Shown: positions 15,056 to 22,311 of the stretch, piece by piece
How the letters are laid out: every line of letters starts with the position of its first letter
Numbering within the stretch: position 1 is the stretch's first letter
Assembly: GCA_016190245.1 (NCBI GenBank)
Contig: JACPQY010000085.1
Coordinates: forward strand, 99,095 to 132,860
Origin: Nitrospirota bacterium
Lineage (GTDB): Bacteria > JACPQY01
Length of the DNA: 33,766 nucleotides
Reading direction: 5' to 3'
Notes under the pieces: model-generated
What the model saw: the letters and a program-made list of their open reading frames with translations, nothing else
Databases searched by the model: none
What the model was told of the DNA's origin: nothing
Position numbers and translations under genes: made by a program

Positions 15056-15313
15056 TCAGTAGATGTCGCCACGCGGGCCGATCGTCTCTACCAAGACGCA
15101 ATTCCTCTCCCCGTCGATCGAGTAGACGACTCGCATGGAACCAACCCCGTAGCGATAGCTCCCCGTCAACTCACCTCGCAGCTTTCGGACATGGGCACCC
15201 GCAAAGGGATCCACCTGAGGTGAAGCGAAGCAACGATCCAACTTCCGGGGTGTCTTGGACGACACCTTTCGGCAGAACTTGAGGGCTTCGTCGGAGAGGC
15301 GGACCTCAAACAC
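15056..15313 (-). CDS. RelE/ParE-type toxin
   Basis: 85 residues with the RelE/ParE fold pattern: LSDEALKFCRKV near the N-terminus, a central DPFAGAHVRKLRGELTGSYRYGVGSMRVVYSID and the C-terminal VLVETIGPRGDIY. The central GSYRYRVGDYRVVY-like motif is the family's best marker. Such toxins either cleave mRNA on the ribosome or poison gyrase; which applies here is not evident. The start overlaps the antitoxin gene by 8 bp, the usual arrangement. Confidence 0.85.
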   Translation of the reverse strand: MFEVRLSDEALKFCRKVSSKTPRKLDRCFASPQVDPFAGAHVRKLRGELTGSYRYGVGSMRVVYSIDGERNCVLVETIGPRGDIY

Positions 15314-15545
15314 GCCGGCGGACGCTTCGCCAGGGCGTGGTCTTTCCTCGACGAACCTGATCGCGACCGCGGCGCCAAGACTTCATGAGCGCGGCGTCGC
15401 CGGTCAGCTCCGATGTGGCTTCCCATTCCTCCTTCTCACGGAGGAACCGTAGAAACACCACGGCCTCCTGGAGTCGATCCGACGGCAACGCCTTGAGAAG
15501 GTTGAACGCCTGGTTTCTCATCCCCACTGGATTATCCTGGTTCAT
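15306..15545 (-). CDS. antitoxin partner of the RelE/ParE-type toxin
   Basis: About 79 residues from the ATG at 15545 (CAGGGG upstream); an ATG at 15521 is possible. It has a helical N-terminus (LLKALPSDRLQEAVVFLRFL) and a basic C-terminal tail (SWRRGRDQVRRGKTTPWRSV). I do not recognise a specific antitoxin family; size, position and overlap with the toxin give the role. It probably autoregulates the pair. Confidence 0.75.
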   Translation of the reverse strand: MNQDNPVGMRNQAFNLLKALPSDRLQEAVVFLRFLREKEEWEATSELTGDAALMKSWRRGRDQVRRGKTTPWRSVRRRV

Positions 15546-15617
15546 CAACCCCTGCGTTGGCAATTCCAAAGGCCTTGACAGATTTCGACTCCGCGCCTCC
15601 AACCGCATCCGCGCGGT

Positions 15618-15701
15618 TCAGACATCCGGCACGGCACGGGATCGGAAGTAGGCCAGGAGTTCCCGCTTGCCGAGGCTTGGGAAACCTGCTCGGCAACAAC
15701 C
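15618..15701 (-). pseudogene. remnant of a second cas9 3' end
   Basis: Read on the minus strand this piece gives SLGKRELLAYFRSR followed by AVPDV and a stop. The end of the intact Cas9 is TLGKRELLAYFRSRPDPAT. DNA identity to the intact 3' end is high over about 40 bases, and the differences inside the conserved peptide (CGT/CGA, TTT/TTC, TAT/TAC, AAA/AAG) are synonymous. The matching frame is closed a few codons upstream. It is the decayed tail of a homologous but diverged cas9, not a fresh duplicate. Confidence 0.75.
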
Positions 15702-15702
15702 C

Positions 15703-16119
15703 TCAGTCTTTCAGCGCACAGGCAGGAAGGTGTTCTTGGATTTTGTCACGGACACGACGGGCGACTTCAACGGCCCCCTGCGCCTCGTGAAACGGAATCG
15801 GTTCCCACCCGCCCGGGTAGCGTGCCGAGGTCGCATACTGCGTCAGTCGCCGTCGCTCTTCGGCGCTCAGCGGGACCACCACATCGCCGGGGACGAGCCT
15901 CGTGATCTGATCCAAATCGTGCGTCTTTGGGAAGTCGATGGCTCTGTGGACAAGCAAGGCCTTCAGATATTTCTCAACGGATTGTTGGGCATGGAAGCAC
16001 ACGGCGCCTGTTGGACAATCCACATGCTTTTCCAACAGAAAAGCAGCCGCCCGAAGGTCATCCTCCGCAACCTGTACCCATTCGCGAGCCAGCCCCTCGG
16101 GTGTATCAGCAGCGCTCAT
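15703..16119 (-). CDS. HEPN-domain protein (toxin of a HEPN-MNT pair)
   Basis: About 138 residues from the ATG at 16119; an upstream start at 16176 is possible. It shows the HEPN four-helix pattern: AREWVQVAEDDLRAAAFLLE, CFHAQQSVEKYLKALLVHR, then FPKTHDLDQITRLV and a C-terminal helix VEVARRVRDKIQEHL. HEPN proteins paired with minimal nucleotidyltransferases act as RNase toxins that the partner neutralises by modification. The gene overlaps the MNT gene by 14 bp. It sits between two cas9 3' ends, which raises the question of how it arrived. Confidence 0.85.
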   Translation of the reverse strand: MSAADTPEGLAREWVQVAEDDLRAAAFLLEKHVDCPTGAVCFHAQQSVEKYLKALLVHRAIDFPKTHDLDQITRLVPGDVVVPLSAEERRRLTQYATSARYPGGWEPIPFHEAQGAVEVARRVRDKIQEHLPACALKD

Positions 16120-16453
16120 AGAGGACGATGCCCTCACGGAGGGCAGGCCGCAGGATAGTGCCGACGAGATTTCCAAATCGGTGCACGTCGTCGGGTGTAA
16201 ACACGATGATATCCTTGGAGACTGGGATGTCGCATAGATCCACCCCGATGCGAACGCTCGCCTCCCTCCTGGACGCTTCCACCGGCATGATGATGAGGAG
16301 GTCCACGTCGCTGTCCGGCCTCGGGTTCCCCCGGGCGTGCGAACCGAAAAGGACGATTTTCTCCGGGTTGTATTTCTCGACGATAATGGACACCATTTGG
16401 CCGATTTCGCCCCGGAGCCTCGGCGTCGGGCCGGCGGAACGCATGGTGCTCAC
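16106..16453 (-). CDS. minimal nucleotidyltransferase (MNT) antitoxin
   Basis: 115 residues of the DNA polymerase beta-like minimal nucleotidyltransferase family. The signature is intact: IVLFGSHARGNPRPDSDVDLLI, the GSxARG loop and DxD catalytic pair. Known partners in HEPN-MNT modules transfer AMP to the HEPN toxin. It is the first gene of the pair and lies about 100 bp downstream of the cas9 stop on the same strand. Confidence 0.88.
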   Translation of the reverse strand: MSTMRSAGPTPRLRGEIGQMVSIIVEKYNPEKIVLFGSHARGNPRPDSDVDLLIIMPVEASRREASVRIGVDLCDIPVSKDIIVFTPDDVHRFGNLVGTILRPALREGIVLYERC

Positions 16454-16556: not shown

Positions 16557-19397
16557 TCAGGTCGCCGGATCCGGCCGGGAACGAAAATAGGCCAGGAGTT
16601 CCCGTTTGCCGAGGGTGCGCTCCGGCGAAGCCGCTCTCTGCTCCCGGGGAATGCCCTGCCGATCCGCCAAGGCGTCCGGGAGCGCATTCTCAGGGATCAC
16701 GATCACGTTGTCGCGGGACAGCTCCTTGACGCGATAGAAAACTCCATCCAACCGAATCACTTCCCCTCGCTCAATTCGGCCGATCTTCTTTGCTCTCTTC
16801 GGCAAAGGCGGATCGATCATGTCTTGAACGAGTTCCCTGATCGCACGAGGACGCACGCGGGAAAGGCACAGACTCTCCCGCGATCCCCTCACCACGCTCC
16901 ACAAGATAGCTGCTTCCGATTGAATGGGCTTGACTTGGACCTTTCTGACCCCGCTTGTTCCATCGTGATGGGGTACTCGCACCACGAGTCCGCCCTTCTG
17001 ACTCTTTGCGGTGTAGCGCCGTTGTCCCGTCGTTGTCGGCTGCGGCAGGGGTTTGTGGACCCAAAGCTTGGGCGTGTCCACGTTGGCGGGCTGCTGAAAC
17101 AGGCTGAGATCCATCAGTTGCCTTCGCCATGTCGCCTTCAGCTTTCCGAGTTCCCGCACAATGGGAACGGCTCGCCGTCTCAGGAATCCGGCCCAGTCCG
17201 GCGCAAGTGCCAACAGCGCGACTCCCGGCCGTGGTCGCAACTCATGTTCAAACGAACCATTCTCCAGAACCACCAAGGCTCCTTTTTCATCCTTCTTGAC
17301 GCAGGGGCGAACGGCGGTCTCGCACAGTATGCGAGGTCGCCAGGTGTGCGGCGGCGTGGCGGCGAGCAGGGCGGCGTCCTGCGCATGATTGAACAAATCC
17401 GTACGATCCTTCCTTGGGAAGTTCTCCTGTCGAGCCTCGCGGTCGTGGAAGAGCCAAGACATGCGGAGGTCGCGGGTCCATCGACCGGAAACCACCTGGA
17501 GGTGCGGTTTCCCGAGGATATACGCCGGGGACGGCGGTTCGACTCCATACGTCTTGAAAAGTTCGGCGATTTCCGCAGCAAACGCTCCGCTTCGGGCGGC
17601 GACCCGCGCCAAGGGAGTCGGGTCGTCCGGGTAGTTCGCGCCCGCCGGGAGCAGAAGAAGCATGCGCTTGAAGTCGGGCATGTTGATTCGCCTGACTCTT
17701 TCTTCAAAACGTAGCCATTCCTCCTCCTTCTTCCACTCGCTCGGCAGTCTGTTGCCTTTCCCCGTGTCGGGATGATTGCATGTGTGGCAGGCAGCCACGC
17801 GATTGAGTTGGAGGTCGGGACCACCGCGTGCCCTCGGCACGATGTGGTCCATCTCCGTTGCCTCCACCGGGATCTCCTTCCCGCAATACATGCAAGTCCC
17901 GCCTGATTCGCCGTGCAGTCTCTCCCGGATGGACAGGGTCTTCCGCTCAGTTTGCTTCCCCTTCCCCACCCGCTCCGTCTGAGGGTCGGGAATCTCCAAG
18001 GTAAGAAGGGCCACCGGACCATGTCGCCACGCTACCTGACCCTTCTTCCCTCGAATGAACAAGATCTCCTCCAGTCTCCTCAACACGCGCTGATCATGCT
18101 GCTCCCGACGCGGATTCGGGGCGTGGCGGCCCCGCATCTGTTGCCAGGCCAGCCCTGCATCCATCATGCTTCCGCCACCAGCGGCCAGATCGAGATGTTG
18201 CATGCACAACTTGGCACGGCCTCGGCGAGGAGTACGATTCAGAAGATCGTTCAACTGCGGAAGCATCGGGTGGTCGAGGTTCCATTGCCCCTTGGAGTTC
18301 TTCATCCATCTCCTCGGCGATTCGATGGAATCCAGGTACTTGCTGATGTTGTCCTCCGACGGGGCGCGTTCGGTCACGGGGACCTTCGGACCTTTCGGGA
18401 AATCAGATCCGCTCGCCCGTTTTTCCCACCAATCAAGCAATGGCTTCCGCTCCTCATTCGACAGGGAGCGAAACTCCCTCGCACCTGTCCATTTTGGGAC
18501 ACGCAGATTACCGACGGCCGCGCGGAATGCCTTGAATCGGACCTCGGGTTTCTTGAGTCTTGGCGTCTTCTTCCCGCACCACGAGCAACCCGACCTCAAT
18601 CGATTGTCGAATCGGGCGGGGCGTAAAACTCTGTTCAGAAGACCGACCAATTCCTTGCACCACCGCTCGATAACCATTGGCTCCATCCGGTGTTTTTCGC
18701 CGAACCGTTGCACGATCACTCGAACAGCGTTTTCCTTGATCTGCCGGGGAACCGCTTTACGCGGTTCGGGTGGCCTGTTCAGCGAGTTCTCATAGGCAGC
18801 CGTCAGCTTCGGTCTGGCGCGACGCTCGACCTCGGCCCTGAGTTGCTCCGCCATCGTGCCGGCCTCTCTCAGGATGCAGCAGGATTCGAGAAAGTCGTGG
18901 AGCCGCGCATCGGGCAGATCCTCGAAATCCTTGTCGTCATACCTGTAGCCGCGTTTCTTGAAGATCAGCGTTATCGCTCGAACAAAACCACGGGCATCGA
19001 GACCATCCTTCTGCGCCACTTCAATCCAACCCGGACCGCCGCAGGGGTCGGCCCCTTTCGTTTCGTAAGTGCCCGGTTTCGGCCAGAATCTCTTGTCGGC
19101 CAGTACGTCATAGGGGTCCGGAAGCCGCTCTCCGTTCGGAAGCTTCTGTCTCAGAACCCATGACCGAAGGCGCGCGAGTCGCATTTTCTTGGCGTGGCGG
19201 GTCCTCCTCCCCCTTCGCAGGATCCGGCGCTGTTCAAGTGTGGCATCGTGAAAATCCACATACGTTTCGGCATGAAGGATTTCGCGATTCCTGACAACGG
19301 CGATGCCGCCCGCGGCCTCACCGAGATCAACACCCACCCGCACAGAATTCAGAAAACTGTCAACACGCGATGCCAAGTCGGGAGGAACGCCATTCAT
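16557..19397 (-). CDS. cas9: Cas9, subtype II-C2-like
   Basis: 946 residues, compact for Cas9. Seen in order: RuvC-I VGVDLGEAAGGIAVV (D24); an Arg-rich bridge helix near 56-80; a REC region with C271-SW-C274 and C398-MQ-H401, a possible zinc site; RuvC-II LLTLEIPDP (E468); an HNH domain with EMDHIVPRARGG (D517, H518), N532 and two Cys pairs (C502/C505, C537/C540); RuvC-III LFNHAQDAALLAA (H671, D674); and a C-terminal PAM-interacting region with KSQKGGLVVRVPHHDG. All nuclease residues expected for RuvC and HNH are present, so it should cut both strands. From memory, segments such as RLARLRSWVLRQK and FVRAITLIFKKRG closely resemble ARMAN-1 Cas9, the II-C2 reference. No Shine-Dalgarno precedes the ATG; the tracrRNA terminator ends about ten bases upstream. 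Confidence 0.95.
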   Translation of the reverse strand: MNGVPPDLASRVDSFLNSVRVGVDLGEAAGGIAVVRNREILHAETYVDFHDATLEQRRILRRGRRTRHAKKMRLARLRSWVLRQKLPNGERLPDPYDVLADKRFWPKPGTYETKGADPCGGPGWIEVAQKDGLDARGFVRAITLIFKKRGYRYDDKDFEDLPDARLHDFLESCCILREAGTMAEQLRAEVERRARPKLTAAYENSLNRPPEPRKAVPRQIKENAVRVIVQRFGEKHRMEPMVIERWCKELVGLLNRVLRPARFDNRLRSGCSWCGKKTPRLKKPEVRFKAFRAAVGNLRVPKWTGAREFRSLSNEERKPLLDWWEKRASGSDFPKGPKVPVTERAPSEDNISKYLDSIESPRRWMKNSKGQWNLDHPMLPQLNDLLNRTPRRGRAKLCMQHLDLAAGGGSMMDAGLAWQQMRGRHAPNPRREQHDQRVLRRLEEILFIRGKKGQVAWRHGPVALLTLEIPDPQTERVGKGKQTERKTLSIRERLHGESGGTCMYCGKEIPVEATEMDHIVPRARGGPDLQLNRVAACHTCNHPDTGKGNRLPSEWKKEEEWLRFEERVRRINMPDFKRMLLLLPAGANYPDDPTPLARVAARSGAFAAEIAELFKTYGVEPPSPAYILGKPHLQVVSGRWTRDLRMSWLFHDREARQENFPRKDRTDLFNHAQDAALLAATPPHTWRPRILCETAVRPCVKKDEKGALVVLENGSFEHELRPRPGVALLALAPDWAGFLRRRAVPIVRELGKLKATWRRQLMDLSLFQQPANVDTPKLWVHKPLPQPTTTGQRRYTAKSQKGGLVVRVPHHDGTSGVRKVQVKPIQSEAAILWSVVRGSRESLCLSRVRPRAIRELVQDMIDPPLPKRAKKIGRIERGEVIRLDGVFYRVKELSRDNVIVIPENALPDALADRQGIPREQRAASPERTLGKRELLAYFRSRPDPAT

Positions 19398-19407
19398 GGT
19401 TCATCAT

Positions 19408-19445
19408 GAGGAGAGAGAAAGAGGCGGCTGGGCTCGGCAGCCGCC
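19408..19445 (-). terminator. intrinsic terminator of the tracrRNA
   Basis: On the minus strand GGCGGCTG and CAGCCGCC form a perfect 8-bp GC stem with a 7-nt loop (19445-19423), followed by the T-rich tail TCTTTCTCTCTCC. It ends about ten bases before the cas9 ATG. Confidence 0.7.
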
Positions 19446-19577
19446 CGGGAGTCCTTGCCCTTCCGCAGAGCCGGCCTTGCGGTGGCGGGGCCAGGCATTG
19501 GGGAGAGCGGGTAGCTGGACTCTGTCATCCGGTCCCGTGTCCTGGCGCCTGGGCTTCTTTCATTCTGGAAGCACCTC
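19412..19577 (-). ncRNA. candidate tracrRNA
   Basis: The anti-repeat lies at 19576-19557. Read on the minus strand it is AGGTGCTTCCAGAATGAAAG. It pairs with the start of the minus-strand CRISPR repeat (CTTTCATTCTCGGAAGCATCT) through 10 bp, a one-base bulge, 7 bp, one mismatch and 2 bp. Directly after the anti-repeat comes AAGCCCAGGCGCC, in the place of the nexus of known tracrRNAs (compare AAGGCUAGUCCG of S. pyogenes, from memory). The RNA would be about 165 nt and end at the intrinsic terminator at 19445-19408. Its position between divergent cas9 and cas1 and the strand both fit type II logic: the anti-repeat 3' end pairs with the repeat 5' end. The exact 5' end is unknown. Confidence 0.82.
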
Positions 19578-19578
19578 T

Positions 19579-19607
19579 ACTTCAGCACCGGAATACTGGC
19601 TTGTCAA
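19579..19607 (-). promoter_or_regulatory. putative tracrRNA (and cas9) promoter
   Basis: A consensus -35 TTGACA at 19607-19602, then 17 bp and a weak -10 TGAAGT at 19584-19579. The start would fall near 19572, at the front of the anti-repeat. The -35 is strong and the -10 is poor, so the exact element is uncertain. Confidence 0.4.
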
Positions 19608-19629
19608 GTACTACATACCTGTGTATGCT
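19601..19629 (+). promoter_or_regulatory. promoter of cas1-cas2-cas4
   Basis: TTGTCA (19601-19606), a 17-bp spacer and TATGCT (19624-19629). The start would be near 19636, with an 80-nt leader carrying AGGAGGG (19708-19713) ahead of the cas1 ATG. Its -35 overlaps the -35 of the divergent tracrRNA promoter. Confidence 0.6.
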
Positions 19630-19718
19630 ATACGAACGGGGGAGGGAGGCGACATGGAGGCGGGCTCATCGCGTGCGACTGGGCAGCCCCTTTTGGGATA
19701 GGGAATAGGAGGGAACGT

Positions 19719-20825
19719 ATGGAACAGGTGATCGTGGATCAATTCGGGGCCTATCTGTCCAAGAAGAGCGAAAGGCTCGTGGTGAAGGCGCCGAGAGCGC
19801 CGGAACTGCGGCCCGCGGATGGGATTCAGCTTCTGCTCCCGTTCCCCGACCCGCCGGATGCCGGCGAGGCCAGACCGGCGCCCCTTCGGAAGGGAACGAT
19901 TCTGGCCGAGATTCCATTTTTCCGAATCTGCGAGATCCTCGTGACCTCCAGGGGGGTGTCGCTCTCGACCGACCTGATCGAGGAGTGTTGCCGGAGGGGG
20001 ATTCGGATCACACTACTGGCGGGGAGCCGACCCTTCGCCATGCTCTCCTCGCCGATGCTGACCGCCACGGTGCAAACGCGCCGCGAACAGATGCAGGCGT
20101 ATCTGGACGAACGCGGGTTCGAACTGGCGCGCGCGTTCTGCGCGGGCAAGGTCCGCAACCAGATCCGCCTTCTCCGTTACTACGGCAAGTATCTCAAGGA
20201 GGCTCACCCCGATCGGTACGAGCAGGTAGCGTCCGGCACGGGGGCGATTGAGGCCATCGAAGGGAAACTCCGCGAAGTGCAGGCGGCGGACATTGATTCG
20301 GCGCGCGAGGTCCTCATGGGTCTGGAGGGCACGGCGGCGCGTGTCTACTGGTCGGGCATTCGATGCCTCTTGGAAGGCCACATCGAGTTCTCCGGGCGCG
20401 AGCATCGGGGGGCCGCCGACCCCGTGAACGCTTCGCTCAATTACGGCTACGGGATTCTCTACTCCGTCGTGTGGGGCGCCATCCTGAACGCCGGGCTCGA
20501 GCCGTTCGCCGGCTTCCTGCACGTGGACCGGCCGGGGAAGCCGTCGCTCGTCCTCGACATGACCGAGGAGTTCCGTGCCCCGGTGGTGGATCGGGCCGTG
20601 GTCGGCCTGTTCACGAGAGACCAGAAGGTGGGGATGGCAGAGGGCCTCCTTGATGCGGAAAGCCGGAAGCTCATTGCCGATCGCGTGAAGGACCGGCTCT
20701 CGGCCCCGGAACCATATCGGGGGGCGAAGTACCAAGTGCGCTCGATCATCCAGGCGCAGGCGCGCCGCGTGGCCGTGGCCGTCCGGCGAGAGGGGCGATA
20801 CGAGCCCTTCGGATTCACCTGGTAG
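19719..20825 (+). CDS. cas1: CRISPR-associated integrase Cas1
   Basis: 368 residues. The catalytic metal-binding residues are visible: E203 in GLEGTAARVYW, H268 in FAGFLHVDRPGKPSLVLD and D280 in LVLDMTEEF. The length and the GFLHVDRPGKPSL motif are those of type I-like Cas1 rather than the roughly 300-residue Cas1 of ordinary II-A/II-C loci. That fits an adaptation module that includes Cas4. It integrates new spacers as a complex with Cas2. Residues about 31-57 are a Pro-rich stretch (LLLPFPDPPDAGEARPAP) that looks like an insertion in the N-terminal beta domain. The start is fixed by AGGAGGG five bases upstream. Confidence 0.95.
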   Translation: MEQVIVDQFGAYLSKKSERLVVKAPRAPELRPADGIQLLLPFPDPPDAGEARPAPLRKGTILAEIPFFRICEILVTSRGVSLSTDLIEECCRRGIRITLLAGSRPFAMLSSPMLTATVQTRREQMQAYLDERGFELARAFCAGKVRNQIRLLRYYGKYLKEAHPDRYEQVASGTGAIEAIEGKLREVQAADIDSAREVLMGLEGTAARVYWSGIRCLLEGHIEFSGREHRGAADPVNASLNYGYGILYSVVWGAILNAGLEPFAGFLHVDRPGKPSLVLDMTEEFRAPVVDRAVVGLFTRDQKVGMAEGLLDAESRKLIADRVKDRLSAPEPYRGAKYQVRSIIQAQARRVAVAVRREGRYEPFGFTW

Positions 20826-20830
20826 GGGCG

Positions 20831-21127
20831 ATGGACGAGATCCTCACGCTGGCCGTGTACGACATCGAGCAGGACCGCATCCGCGCGAAGATCGCCGATA
20901 TCTGCAAGGACTACGGCCTCGAGCGGATCCAGTTCAGCGCGTTCATGGGCCGTCTCTCCCGAAACCGCCGGGAGGAGCTGTTTCTCAAACTCACCGGGAG
21001 ACTTGGGGACACGCCCGGTCAAATCCTCGTCGTGCCCATCTGCGAGAAAGACGCCCGGGCCGTCCAGGAGAAGACGGTCCCACCCGCGCGCGAGGCACAC
21101 GGCGCCGAGGAGACCTCGGCACCATGA
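20831..21127 (+). CDS. cas2: CRISPR-associated protein Cas2
   Basis: 98 residues with a ferredoxin-like fold pattern: LAVYDIEQDRIRAKIADICK at the N-terminus (D11 of the YDI motif), YGLERIQFSAFMGRLS, then GQILVVPICEKDAR. It forms the central dimer of the Cas1-Cas2 integrase. It starts 5 bp after cas1 and overlaps cas4 by 4 bp (ATGA), so the three genes form one translationally coupled operon. The last 20 residues are an unstructured-looking tail. Confidence 0.95.
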   Translation: MDEILTLAVYDIEQDRIRAKIADICKDYGLERIQFSAFMGRLSRNRREELFLKLTGRLGDTPGQILVVPICEKDARAVQEKTVPPAREAHGAEETSAP

Positions 21128-21696
21128 TCCTCCGCGTGGCGGACCTCAGGCAGTACGCGTACTGTCCACGCGTCGTCTACTTCACGTACGTCCAACCCCT
21201 CGATCGGCAGCCCACGTACAAAATGAAGGAGGGGAACTCCGCCGAGTCCAAGACCATACCCACGGAAAGACGGCGAACGCTCGCCCGCTACGAATTGCCC
21301 CAAGGCGTTCGAACATTCGGCGTATCGCTCTCCTCCCCAAGAATCGGACTGAGCGGAAAACTCGATCTCCTGATCGAAGCCGAGGGAAGGTACTATCCCG
21401 TGGAGTTCAAGACCACCCGTCCCAGTGTTTTTCCCAACATGCGATGCCAGCTCGCGGGCTACGCCCTGTTGGTCGAGGAACGATCCGGTACACCGGTGGA
21501 GAGCGGATTCATCCAGTTTCTTCCTTCCGGCCGAACCTTCCCGGTGGATCTCCCGAGCACGCTCAAGGCCGAGACGCGCGGACTCGTTGAGACCATGCGC
21601 CGGATGATCGAACGGGAGGAGATGCCGGAGCCCACGCCACGGCAGCAGCGGTGCGCGGACTGCGAATATCGAAACTTCTGCGGGGATGTTTCGTGA
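21124..21696 (+). CDS. cas4: Cas4 nuclease (PD-(D/E)XK, iron-sulfur)
   Basis: 190 residues. Four Cys for an iron-sulfur cluster are placed as in the family: C14 (QYAYCPR) and C177, C180 and C186 (RCADCEYRNFC). Nuclease motifs are D81 (GKLDLLIE), E94-x-K96 (VEFKTTRP) and the QLAGYALL motif (Q109, Y113). Cas4 trims prespacers and selects PAM-proximal ends before Cas1-Cas2 integration. Cas4 beside a small Cas9 is a mark of subtype II-C2; II-B also has Cas4 but with a much larger Cas9. Confidence 0.95.
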   Translation: MILRVADLRQYAYCPRVVYFTYVQPLDRQPTYKMKEGNSAESKTIPTERRRTLARYELPQGVRTFGVSLSSPRIGLSGKLDLLIEAEGRYYPVEFKTTRPSVFPNMRCQLAGYALLVEERSGTPVESGFIQFLPSGRTFPVDLPSTLKAETRGLVETMRRMIEREEMPEPTPRQQRCADCEYRNFCGDVS

Positions 21697-21779
21697 CGCC
21701 GGGCGTTTCGAAAATCCCCCGCCTTTTCCGGCGGGCTAGGCGTTTTCGAGGTCGTCTGGCTGTAGAAGCCGAAAATCGG

Positions 21780-21812
21780 CTGAAAGGGCGGGCACATGGC
21801 CCGCCCTTTCAG
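21780..21812. terminator. bidirectional hairpin between cas4 and the array
   Basis: A perfect 14-bp stem (CTGAAAGGGCGGGC and its complement, loop ACATG) whose right arm is the first seven bases of repeat 1. Both directions read GC stem then TTTC, so it can end the cas operon on the plus strand and a pre-crRNA from the minus strand. Smaller hairpins lie at 21718-21735 and 21767-21781 (AGCCGAAAATCGGCT). Confidence 0.55.
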
Positions 21813-22311
21813 AGGCTACCAAGATGCTTCCGAGAATGAAAGACTCGGTCACGCGGGCCTCTAGGGCGGCGCGGTCGGCTTTCAGAGGCTACCAAGATGC
21901 TTCCGAGAATGAAAGTCCTAAATGGAGGGCGTCCCGTTTCCGGGCGGTTTCTTTCAGAGGCTACCAAGATGCTTCCGAGAATGAAAGCCTCCTCAATGTC
22001 CTGCGTAAACGCGTCGCTCAGTCCTTTCAGAGGCTACCAAGATGCTTCCGAGAATGAAAGGTTGCTATCCGGGGCTCGGCGGCGATTGCGGATCGGGACT
22101 TTCAGAGGCTACCAAGATGCTTCCGAGAATGAAAGATGCCCGTGCTGTCGGCGGGTACTAGAGAGCCACGACTTTCAGAGGCTACCAAGATGCTTCCGAG
22201 AATGAAAGGGCTGCTGCCGTGCCTCCGGGAGCGGCTGTTACTGTACAGTGGACGGCCGTCCACTGTACAGTATGAGCTTGTGGGCGCCCGAACCGCTTCC
22301 CGGAATGAAAC
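21806..22311 (-). CRISPR. CRISPR array: six identical 37-nt repeats plus one decayed repeat
   Basis: Repeats (plus strand CTTTCAGAGGCTACC...GAGAATGAAAG) start at 21806, 21879, 21951, 22024, 22099 and 22172 and are identical. Five spacers of 36, 35, 36, 38 and 36 nt lie between them. The repeat ends are inverted (CTTTCA/TGAAAG). A decayed repeat at 22275-22311 keeps only its inner half (GCTTCCCGGAATGAAAC), 66 bp after repeat 6. The decayed copy is far from cas4, so new spacers are probably added at the cas4 side. The tracrRNA anti-repeat implies that the functional crRNA is the minus strand, transcribed from the decayed end towards cas4. No clear -10 is seen within the repeat. Confidence 0.97.
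22239..22272. promoter_or_regulatory. nested 34-bp perfect palindrome beside the array
   Basis: T, ACTGTACAGT, GGACGGCCGTCC, ACTGTACAGT, A: a 34-bp perfect palindrome made of two identical 10-bp palindromes whose centres are 22 bp apart, with a 12-bp palindrome between. It lies between repeat 6 and the decayed repeat, on the side from which minus-strand crRNA transcription should enter. It may be a double operator, or a hairpin. Confidence 0.55.

What the first reader, a model, noticed from the sequence alone, without database searches (positions are those of the whole stretch)
16557..22311. Complete subtype II-C2-like CRISPR-Cas9 locus in a bacterial chromosome
A 946-aa Cas9 with all RuvC and HNH catalytic residues, a type I-like Cas1, Cas2, Cas4 and a 37-nt repeat array are present together. 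Cas4 with a small Cas9 is the hallmark of II-C2, first described from ARMAN archaea. The Cas9 shares long segments with what I recall of ARMAN-1 Cas9 (bridge helix, FVRAITLIF, LFNHAxDAA, SQKGG). Surrounding genes are clearly bacterial.
Basis: partly seen in the sequence, partly recalled or inferred. Interest (0 to 1): 0.85.

Follow-up and report, generated by a model that had tools for sequence, protein, structure and literature searches.

The report
Bacterial Cas9d (type II-D) CRISPR locus
A rarely sampled bacterial lineage carries a complete small-Cas9 CRISPR immune system of the kind first seen in tiny archaea, and comparing it with its relatives reveals the guide-RNA partner (tracrRNA) that they all share.

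Summary
Cas9 (946 aa, 16557-19397, minus strand), Cas1, Cas2, Cas4 (plus strand) and six exact 37-nt repeats form one locus. In a careful tree this Cas9 groups with an archaeal Cas9 (Micrarchaeota phylum) and with Nitrospirota and Lindowbacteria Cas9s (100/99 support). Grouping with II-C1 is rejected (AU p=4e-5), and II-B is excluded by profile. NCBI's Cas9d model scores 702 bits (cut-off 375). The 2025 classification folded the archaeal "II-C2" into subtype II-D, with cas1-cas2-cas4, in DPANN archaea and "some bacteria". So this is a new member of a known kind: II-D, large-Cas9 (former II-C2) branch.

Its anti-repeat pairs with the first half of the repeat read on the minus strand. Five distinct loci, one archaeal, keep this pairing through compensatory changes and share the motif GAAAGAAGCYC. 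This fixes the crRNA direction as opposite to cas1-2-4. RNase III is encoded in the genome. No spacer target was found. Relatives show Cas9 swapping beside a nearly constant adaptation module. Interest is moderate.

The parts
16557..19397 (-). cas9 (Cas9d, large form, 946 aa)
   Evidence: NF049971 CRISPR_Cas9d 702.1 bits, cut-off 375; tree; catalytic residues invariant
19415..19572 (-). predicted tracrRNA (about 158 nt), upstream of cas9 on the cas9 strand; both ends are estimates
   Evidence: anti-repeat, core GAAAGAAGCCCAGGCGC and GGAAGGGCAAGG shared with L113; core shared with L034, L035, L050, L101, L112
19557..19573 (-). anti-repeat, pairs with the 5' half of the repeat read on the minus strand (one bulge)
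   Evidence: -30.5 kcal/mol against a best of -21.5 in 100 other 321-bp blocks and -22.5 in 100 shuffles; covariation 0.52 against 0.12 shuffled, 0/500
19579..19607 (-). possible tracrRNA promoter: TTGACA, 17 nt, TGAAGT (second hexamer weak)
   Evidence: sequence reading only; similar spacing read in L113, L034 and L050; not found by the consensus scan
19453..19464 (-). second conserved tracrRNA block GGAAGGGCAAGG; GGGC can pair with the GCCC of the core
   Evidence: archaeal L112 has GCUC with GAGC, a compensatory change
19422..19446 (-). terminator-like hairpin at the tracrRNA 3' end
   Evidence: 9 pairs, then CTTTCTCTCT
19719..20825 (+). cas1
   Evidence: TIGR00287 238 bits; tree
20831..21127 (+). 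cas2
   Evidence: TIGR01573 50 bits
21124..21696 (+). cas4
   Evidence: TIGR00372 120 bits; best PADLOC profile Cas4_II
21806..22208 (-). CRISPR array, six identical 37-nt repeats; predicted crRNA strand is minus (repeat 5'-CTTTCATTCTCGGAAGCATCTTGGTAGCCTCTGAAAG-3')
   Evidence: direction from the anti-repeat
22277..22311 (-). degenerate terminal repeat
   Evidence: sequence reading
22240..22271 (.). 32-nt palindrome in the last spacer region, dispersed in the genome
   Evidence: 9 places in the own genome at up to 3 mismatches, control 0

Best explanation
A complete subtype II-D CRISPR-Cas9 system of the large-Cas9 branch (the former archaeal II-C2), on a chromosomal contig of a bacterium from a rarely sampled phylum. 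Cas1-Cas2, with Cas4 choosing and trimming prespacers, adds spacers (inferred from family). The array is transcribed on the minus strand, towards cas4, opposite to cas1-2-4. A separate minus-strand tracrRNA of about 160 nt, encoded just upstream of cas9, pairs through its 5' anti-repeat with the first ~17 nt of each repeat; the cell's RNase III probably trims the duplex. Cas9d carries the dual RNA and cuts matching DNA on both strands with RuvC and HNH. Shown here: gene content, catalytic residues, lineage, the repeat/anti-repeat pairing and its covariation, conservation of the tracrRNA core, an RNase III gene. Inferred: transcription, RNA processing, spacer uptake, DNA cleavage and PAM.
For: NF049971 Cas9d 702 bits over residues 20-936; general Cas9 TIGR01865 75 (cut-off 100); II-B TIGR03031 11 (cut-off 399). 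The same model recognises archaeal L112 (493), Nitrospirota L113 (598) and the 736-aa protein of PDB 9k32 (514). Cas9 clade with archaeal L112 100/99; grouping with II-C1 rejected, p=3.9e-5. II-D Cas1 set separated from II-C Cas1 100/100; one clade not rejected, p=0.48. Anti-repeat energy far outside background; exact repeat/anti-repeat runs of 10-15 nt in six loci, 4 of 10 pairs with double-sided changes, covariation score reached by 0/500 shuffles. Core GAAAGAAGCYC upstream of cas9 on its strand in the window, L034, L035, L050, L112, L113 and L101. RNase III in the own genome. Published: II-D loci share cas1-cas2-cas4 and encode tracrRNA (PMC12669027); Cas9c2/Cas9d enzymes cut dsDNA and have Zn ribbons (PMC9755519).
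Against: Small Cas9d and large Cas9 join with only 74/56 support here, so unity of II-D rests mainly on Cas1 and on the published tree. No protospacer found for five spacers by exact 20-22-mers in viral contigs. The array is short and its last spacer is interrupted by a palindrome. No expression or activity data.
Confidence: 0.9

Rival explanations
1. An ordinary II-C1 (or II-B) system that has picked up a type I-like cas1-cas2-cas4 module.
For: Size is within the II-C range; array polarity opposite to cas1-2-4 is also known from II-C (own knowledge).
Against: II-C1 grouping rejected, p=3.9e-5, and II-C refs form their own 97/93 branch; Cas9d 702 bits against 75 for general Cas9 and 11 for II-B; the tracrRNA core is shared with the archaeal and Nitrospirota Cas9d loci.
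Confidence: 0.03
2. A relic: the locus is complete in sequence but no longer active (short array, no known targets, a second CRISPR system elsewhere).
For: Only six intact repeats; dispersed palindrome in the last spacer; no protospacer hits; a type I-E system with its own Cas1 in the same genome; relic of a second cas9 3' end downstream.
Against: All four genes open with catalytic residues kept; six repeats identical; repeat/anti-repeat pairing intact; terminator-like hairpin present.
Confidence: 0.12
3. The array is transcribed on the plus strand from a leader next to cas4, and the repeat match at 19557-19573 is only a stray repeat fragment.
For: The degenerate repeat lies at the cas4-distal end, the usual place of the oldest repeat when the leader is beside cas4; palindromic structure next to the first repeat.
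Against: The anti-repeat covers the 5' half only in the minus-strand reading, as type II requires; the same geometry with covarying sequence is seen in L034, L050, L112 and L113. Acquisition beside cas4 and transcription from the other end are compatible, as in II-C.
Confidence: 0.05

Closest known systems
CRISPR-Cas subtype II-D, large-Cas9 branch (former II-C2; Cas9c2/MG33 family, archaeal Cas9)
   Same: Cas9 of 900-1050 aa, cas1-cas2-cas4, tracrRNA, Zn-ribbon cysteines in REC and HNH, clade with an archaeal Cas9
   Different: host is a bacterium of a phylum with two held genomes; cas9 faces away from cas1-2-4; a type I-E system shares the genome, whereas PMC9755519 reports these systems are generally the only one present
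Nitrospirota locus L113 (G934)
   Same: nearest Cas9 (46% over 902 residues); tracrRNA identical in both conserved blocks; same 37-38-nt repeat class
   Different: cas9-cas1-cas2-cas4 on one strand; cas4 only 36% identical; different repeat sequence
Small Cas9d locus L114 (G806; protein of PDB 9k32, 736 aa)
   Same: nearest Cas1 and Cas4 (51% and 45%); same adaptation module; same NCBI Cas9d model
   Different: Cas9 only 27% identical and about 210 aa shorter; array lies between cas9 and cas1; the tracrRNA core was not found in the same form
Subtype II-C1
   Same: RuvC/HNH architecture, array polarity opposite to the cas genes
   Different: Cas1 of another lineage, no cas4, Cas9 in another clade (rejected by AU test)

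Membership tests
CRISPR-Cas subtype II-D (2025 definition) | Cas9d effector in the deep Cas9 branch | tested here: met
   NF049971 702 bits; clade with archaeal and bacterial Cas9d, 100/99
CRISPR-Cas subtype II-D (2025 definition) | adaptation module cas1-cas2-cas4 | tested here: met
CRISPR-Cas subtype II-D (2025 definition) | Cas1 in one branch with other II-D Cas1 | tested here: met
   100/100 away from II-C; AU does not reject one clade, p=0.48, though Rubrobacter and Arcobacter Cas1 fall in the same wider fork (95/88)
CRISPR-Cas subtype II-D (2025 definition) | tracrRNA encoded | tested here: met
   sequence prediction with covariation; not shown to be expressed
Large and small Cas9d as one clade | monophyly of Cas9d | tested here: inconclusive
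   74/56
Former II-C2 (archaeal Cas9) | Cas9 groups with archaeal Cas9 apart from small Cas9d | tested here: met
   clade with L112 100/99; ARMAN-1 and ARMAN-4 themselves not available
Subtype II-C1 | Cas9 inside the II-C1 clade | tested here: not met
   p-AU 3.9e-5
Subtype II-B | Cas9/Csx12 profile | tested here: not met
   TIGR03031 11.4 bits, cut-off 399
Active RNA-guided nuclease | RuvC and HNH catalytic residues | tested here: met
   D24, E468, H671, D674, H518, N541 invariant
Active RNA-guided nuclease | guided dsDNA cleavage and PAM | not testable with these tools
   -

The most novel reading that the evidence does not exclude
One tracrRNA architecture (anti-repeat, GAAAGAAGCYC core, GGGC partner) is shared by bacterial and archaeal II-D systems even though archaea lack RNase III. 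The guide would then be built for maturation that does not depend on RNase III, and the large-Cas9d lineage moved between the domains together with its RNA.
Probability: 0.3. Interest if true: 0.65.

Novelty: new member of a known kind. Interest (0 to 1): 0.42.

Why it matters
It extends the large-Cas9d branch to another bacterial lineage and shows that "archaeal-type" Cas9 is found in several bacterial groups. The conserved tracrRNA core and the covarying anti-repeats give a ready guide design and make the open question of crRNA maturation without RNase III testable: compare this RNase III-bearing host with the archaeal relatives that use the same RNA layout. The shared adaptation module across large and small Cas9d loci supports the 2025 merger of II-C2 into II-D.

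Tried and rejected
AlphaFold model of Cas9 from four sequences: mean pLDDT 49.6, pTM 0.35, too poor for a fold search, none run. L054 (Micrarchaeota LL2.bin4) at first looked like an archaeal Cas9d but is ordinary II-C by both Cas9 and Cas1 trees. L033, L036 and L053 match the Cas9d model below its cut-off; L033 and L053 fall with II-C in the trees; L036 is a contig-end fragment and was not placed. Close-relative scans with the single protein found nothing in genome contigs or viral contigs; plasmids and phages gave only HNH/IscB or Cas9 pieces. Spacer 20-22-mers: no viral match. Folding the window tracrRNA alone is no better than shuffles (z=0.55), so its claim rests on the anti-repeat and on conservation, not on folding energy. 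Rfam found only a tRNA. No paper links Lindowbacteria and Cas9 in the held library.

Full report
The window is C79:99095-132860 of a 3.29-Mb, 85%-complete draft genome whose phylum has only two genomes in the held set of 97,973 species. The genome is bacterial: a Lindowbacteria genome (G030 = L051) is listed as kin in the same domain, and the flanking genes (methylmalonyl-CoA mutase, acyl-CoA dehydrogenase, asparaginase, glycosyl transferase family 4, ETF alpha, polysaccharide export) are ordinary bacterial ones. The phylum itself could not be named with the tools.

The locus. Minus strand: cas9, 16557-19397. Plus strand: cas1 19719-20825, cas2 20831-21127, cas4 21124-21696, then an array of six identical 37-nt repeats at 21806-22208 with 35-38-nt spacers and a degenerate repeat ending at 22311. 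A search of the own genome with the repeat found no other array of this type.

What Cas9 is. NCBIfam's Cas9d model matches 20-936 at 702 bits (cut-off 375); general Cas9 reaches 75 (cut-off 100) and II-B Cas9 11 (cut-off 399). The same model takes in the large Cas9s of Nitrospirota L113 (598) and Nitrospirae J017 L050 (470), Lindowbacteria L034/L051 (452), an archaeal protein L112 from the Micrarchaeota phylum (493), and the 736-aa Nitrospirota protein that is the one in PDB 9k32 (514). Across 386 genomes spread over families only two passed the cut-off, the window's own among them; 1 of 301 in the Micrarchaeota phylum and 3 of 395 in Nitrospirota did. In a careful maximum-likelihood tree the window, L113, L050, L034 and archaeal L112 form a clade at 100/99, L035/L101 join next (91/89), and II-C references form another branch (97/93). 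Forcing the window and L113 into II-C1 is rejected (p=3.9e-5). The small Cas9d joins the large ones at only 74/56.

Catalysis. D24, E468, H671, D674 (RuvC) and H518, N541 (HNH) are invariant in seven sequences. The 9k32 construct carries alanine at the positions equivalent to D24 and H518, as seen by comparing its chain with the native gene, which marks them as the catalytic ones. Cysteines C271, C274 and C398 in the recognition lobe are invariant too, in line with the Zn ribbons described for Cas9c2 and Cas9d (PMC9755519).

Cas1. A careful Cas1 tree separates the II-D set from ten type II-C Cas1s (100/100) and does not reject one II-D clade (p=0.48); Rubrobacter and Arcobacter (III-B) plasmid Cas1s fall in the same wider fork (95/88). 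The window's Cas1 and Cas4 are closest to those of the small-Cas9d locus L114, while its Cas9 is closest to L113. This mixture supports the 2025 view that large and small Cas9d loci share one adaptation module (PMC12669027).

The tracrRNA. A scan for RNA duplexes with the repeat picked out the cas9-cas1 gap. The 5' half of the repeat, read on the minus strand, pairs with 19557-19573 at -30.5 kcal/mol; the best of 100 other blocks of equal size is -21.5 and of 100 shuffles -22.5. The nearest relative L113 has the same arrangement and two identical blocks, GAAAGAAGCCCAGGCGC and GGAAGGGCAAGG. The first block, GAAAGAAGCCC, stands upstream of cas9 on its strand in L034, L035, L050 and L101, and as GAAAGAAGCUC in archaeal L112. 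In each locus with a known repeat, the bases before the core are an exact complement of the first 10-15 bases of that locus's own, different repeat. On five distinct loci all 10 counted pairs form in every sequence, four with changes on both sides; covariation 0.52 against 0.12 in shuffles (0/500), and sliding by one base drops pairing to about half. The GCCC of the core can pair with the later GGGC; in L112 both sides change together (GCUC with GAGC), a single compensatory case read by eye. A terminator-like hairpin follows at 19446-19422. A TTGACA with 17-nt spacing places a possible start near 19572, giving about 158 nt; this is inference.

How it works. In type II systems the anti-repeat pairs with the repeat half next to the spacer's 3' end. 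That holds here only if crRNAs come from the minus strand, so the array is read towards cas4, opposite to cas1-2-4. RNase III is present in the genome (213 bits, cut-off 166) and would trim the duplex. Uptake of spacers by Cas1-Cas2-Cas4 and cutting by Cas9d follow from the families and were not tested.

Name. The current classification assigns this lineage to II-D and already records some bacterial carriers, so I file it as II-D, large-Cas9 branch, a new member of a known kind.

Limits. No spacer target was found. The structure model was too poor to use. The genome is a draft, so the second CRISPR system (I-E) could in principle be a binning error.

Noticed in passing
L034 (G030, Lindowbacteria) and L035 (G177), same family: cas1, cas2 and cas4 are 93%, 93% and 89% identical and repeats and anti-repeats are the same, yet the two Cas9s are only 30% identical and the tracrRNA bodies differ: Cas9 with its tracrRNA body swapped beside a constant adaptation module.
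   Followed up: partly
window 15626-15675, minus strand: A relic of a second cas9 3' end (LGKRELLAYFRSR, 39 of 44 bases identical) lies beyond the HEPN/nucleotidyltransferase pair; possibly left by an earlier cas9 at this place.
   Followed up: partly
window 15056-16453, minus strand: Two toxin-antitoxin-like pairs sit directly downstream of cas9: a HEPN plus nucleotidyltransferase pair (Pfam) and a RelE/ParE-looking protein with a small partner (by eye, no Pfam match).
   Followed up: partly
window 22240-22271: A 32-nt perfect palindrome ACTGTACAGTGGACGGCCGTCCACTGTACAGT lies in the last spacer; the own genome holds nine copies at up to 3 mismatches (control 0). Removing it leaves a spacer of about normal length, so it looks like an inserted dispersed element.
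   Followed up: partly
L115 (G000:C11:34000-42575): The same draft genome carries a type I-E locus (Cas7e, Cas5e, its own Cas1, GTCCCCACGCACGTGGGGGTGAACCG-like repeats).
   Followed up: partly
L034:12846-13292, L035:12957-13409: A TIR-like (CAP12/Pycsar effector) gene and a DUF2442 gene lie between cas9 and cas1 in these two II-D loci (tested in L034).
   Followed up: no
L050:4284-5627, minus strand: An IscB-like gene (RRXRR plus HNH) lies about 650 bp from the Cas9d gene in Nitrospirae J017, next to a TnpB-like ORF (by eye).
   Followed up: no
L054 (Micrarchaeota LL2.bin4): A short contig in an archaeal bin carries an ordinary II-C cas9-cas1-cas2 locus; could be mis-binned bacterial DNA.
   Followed up: no
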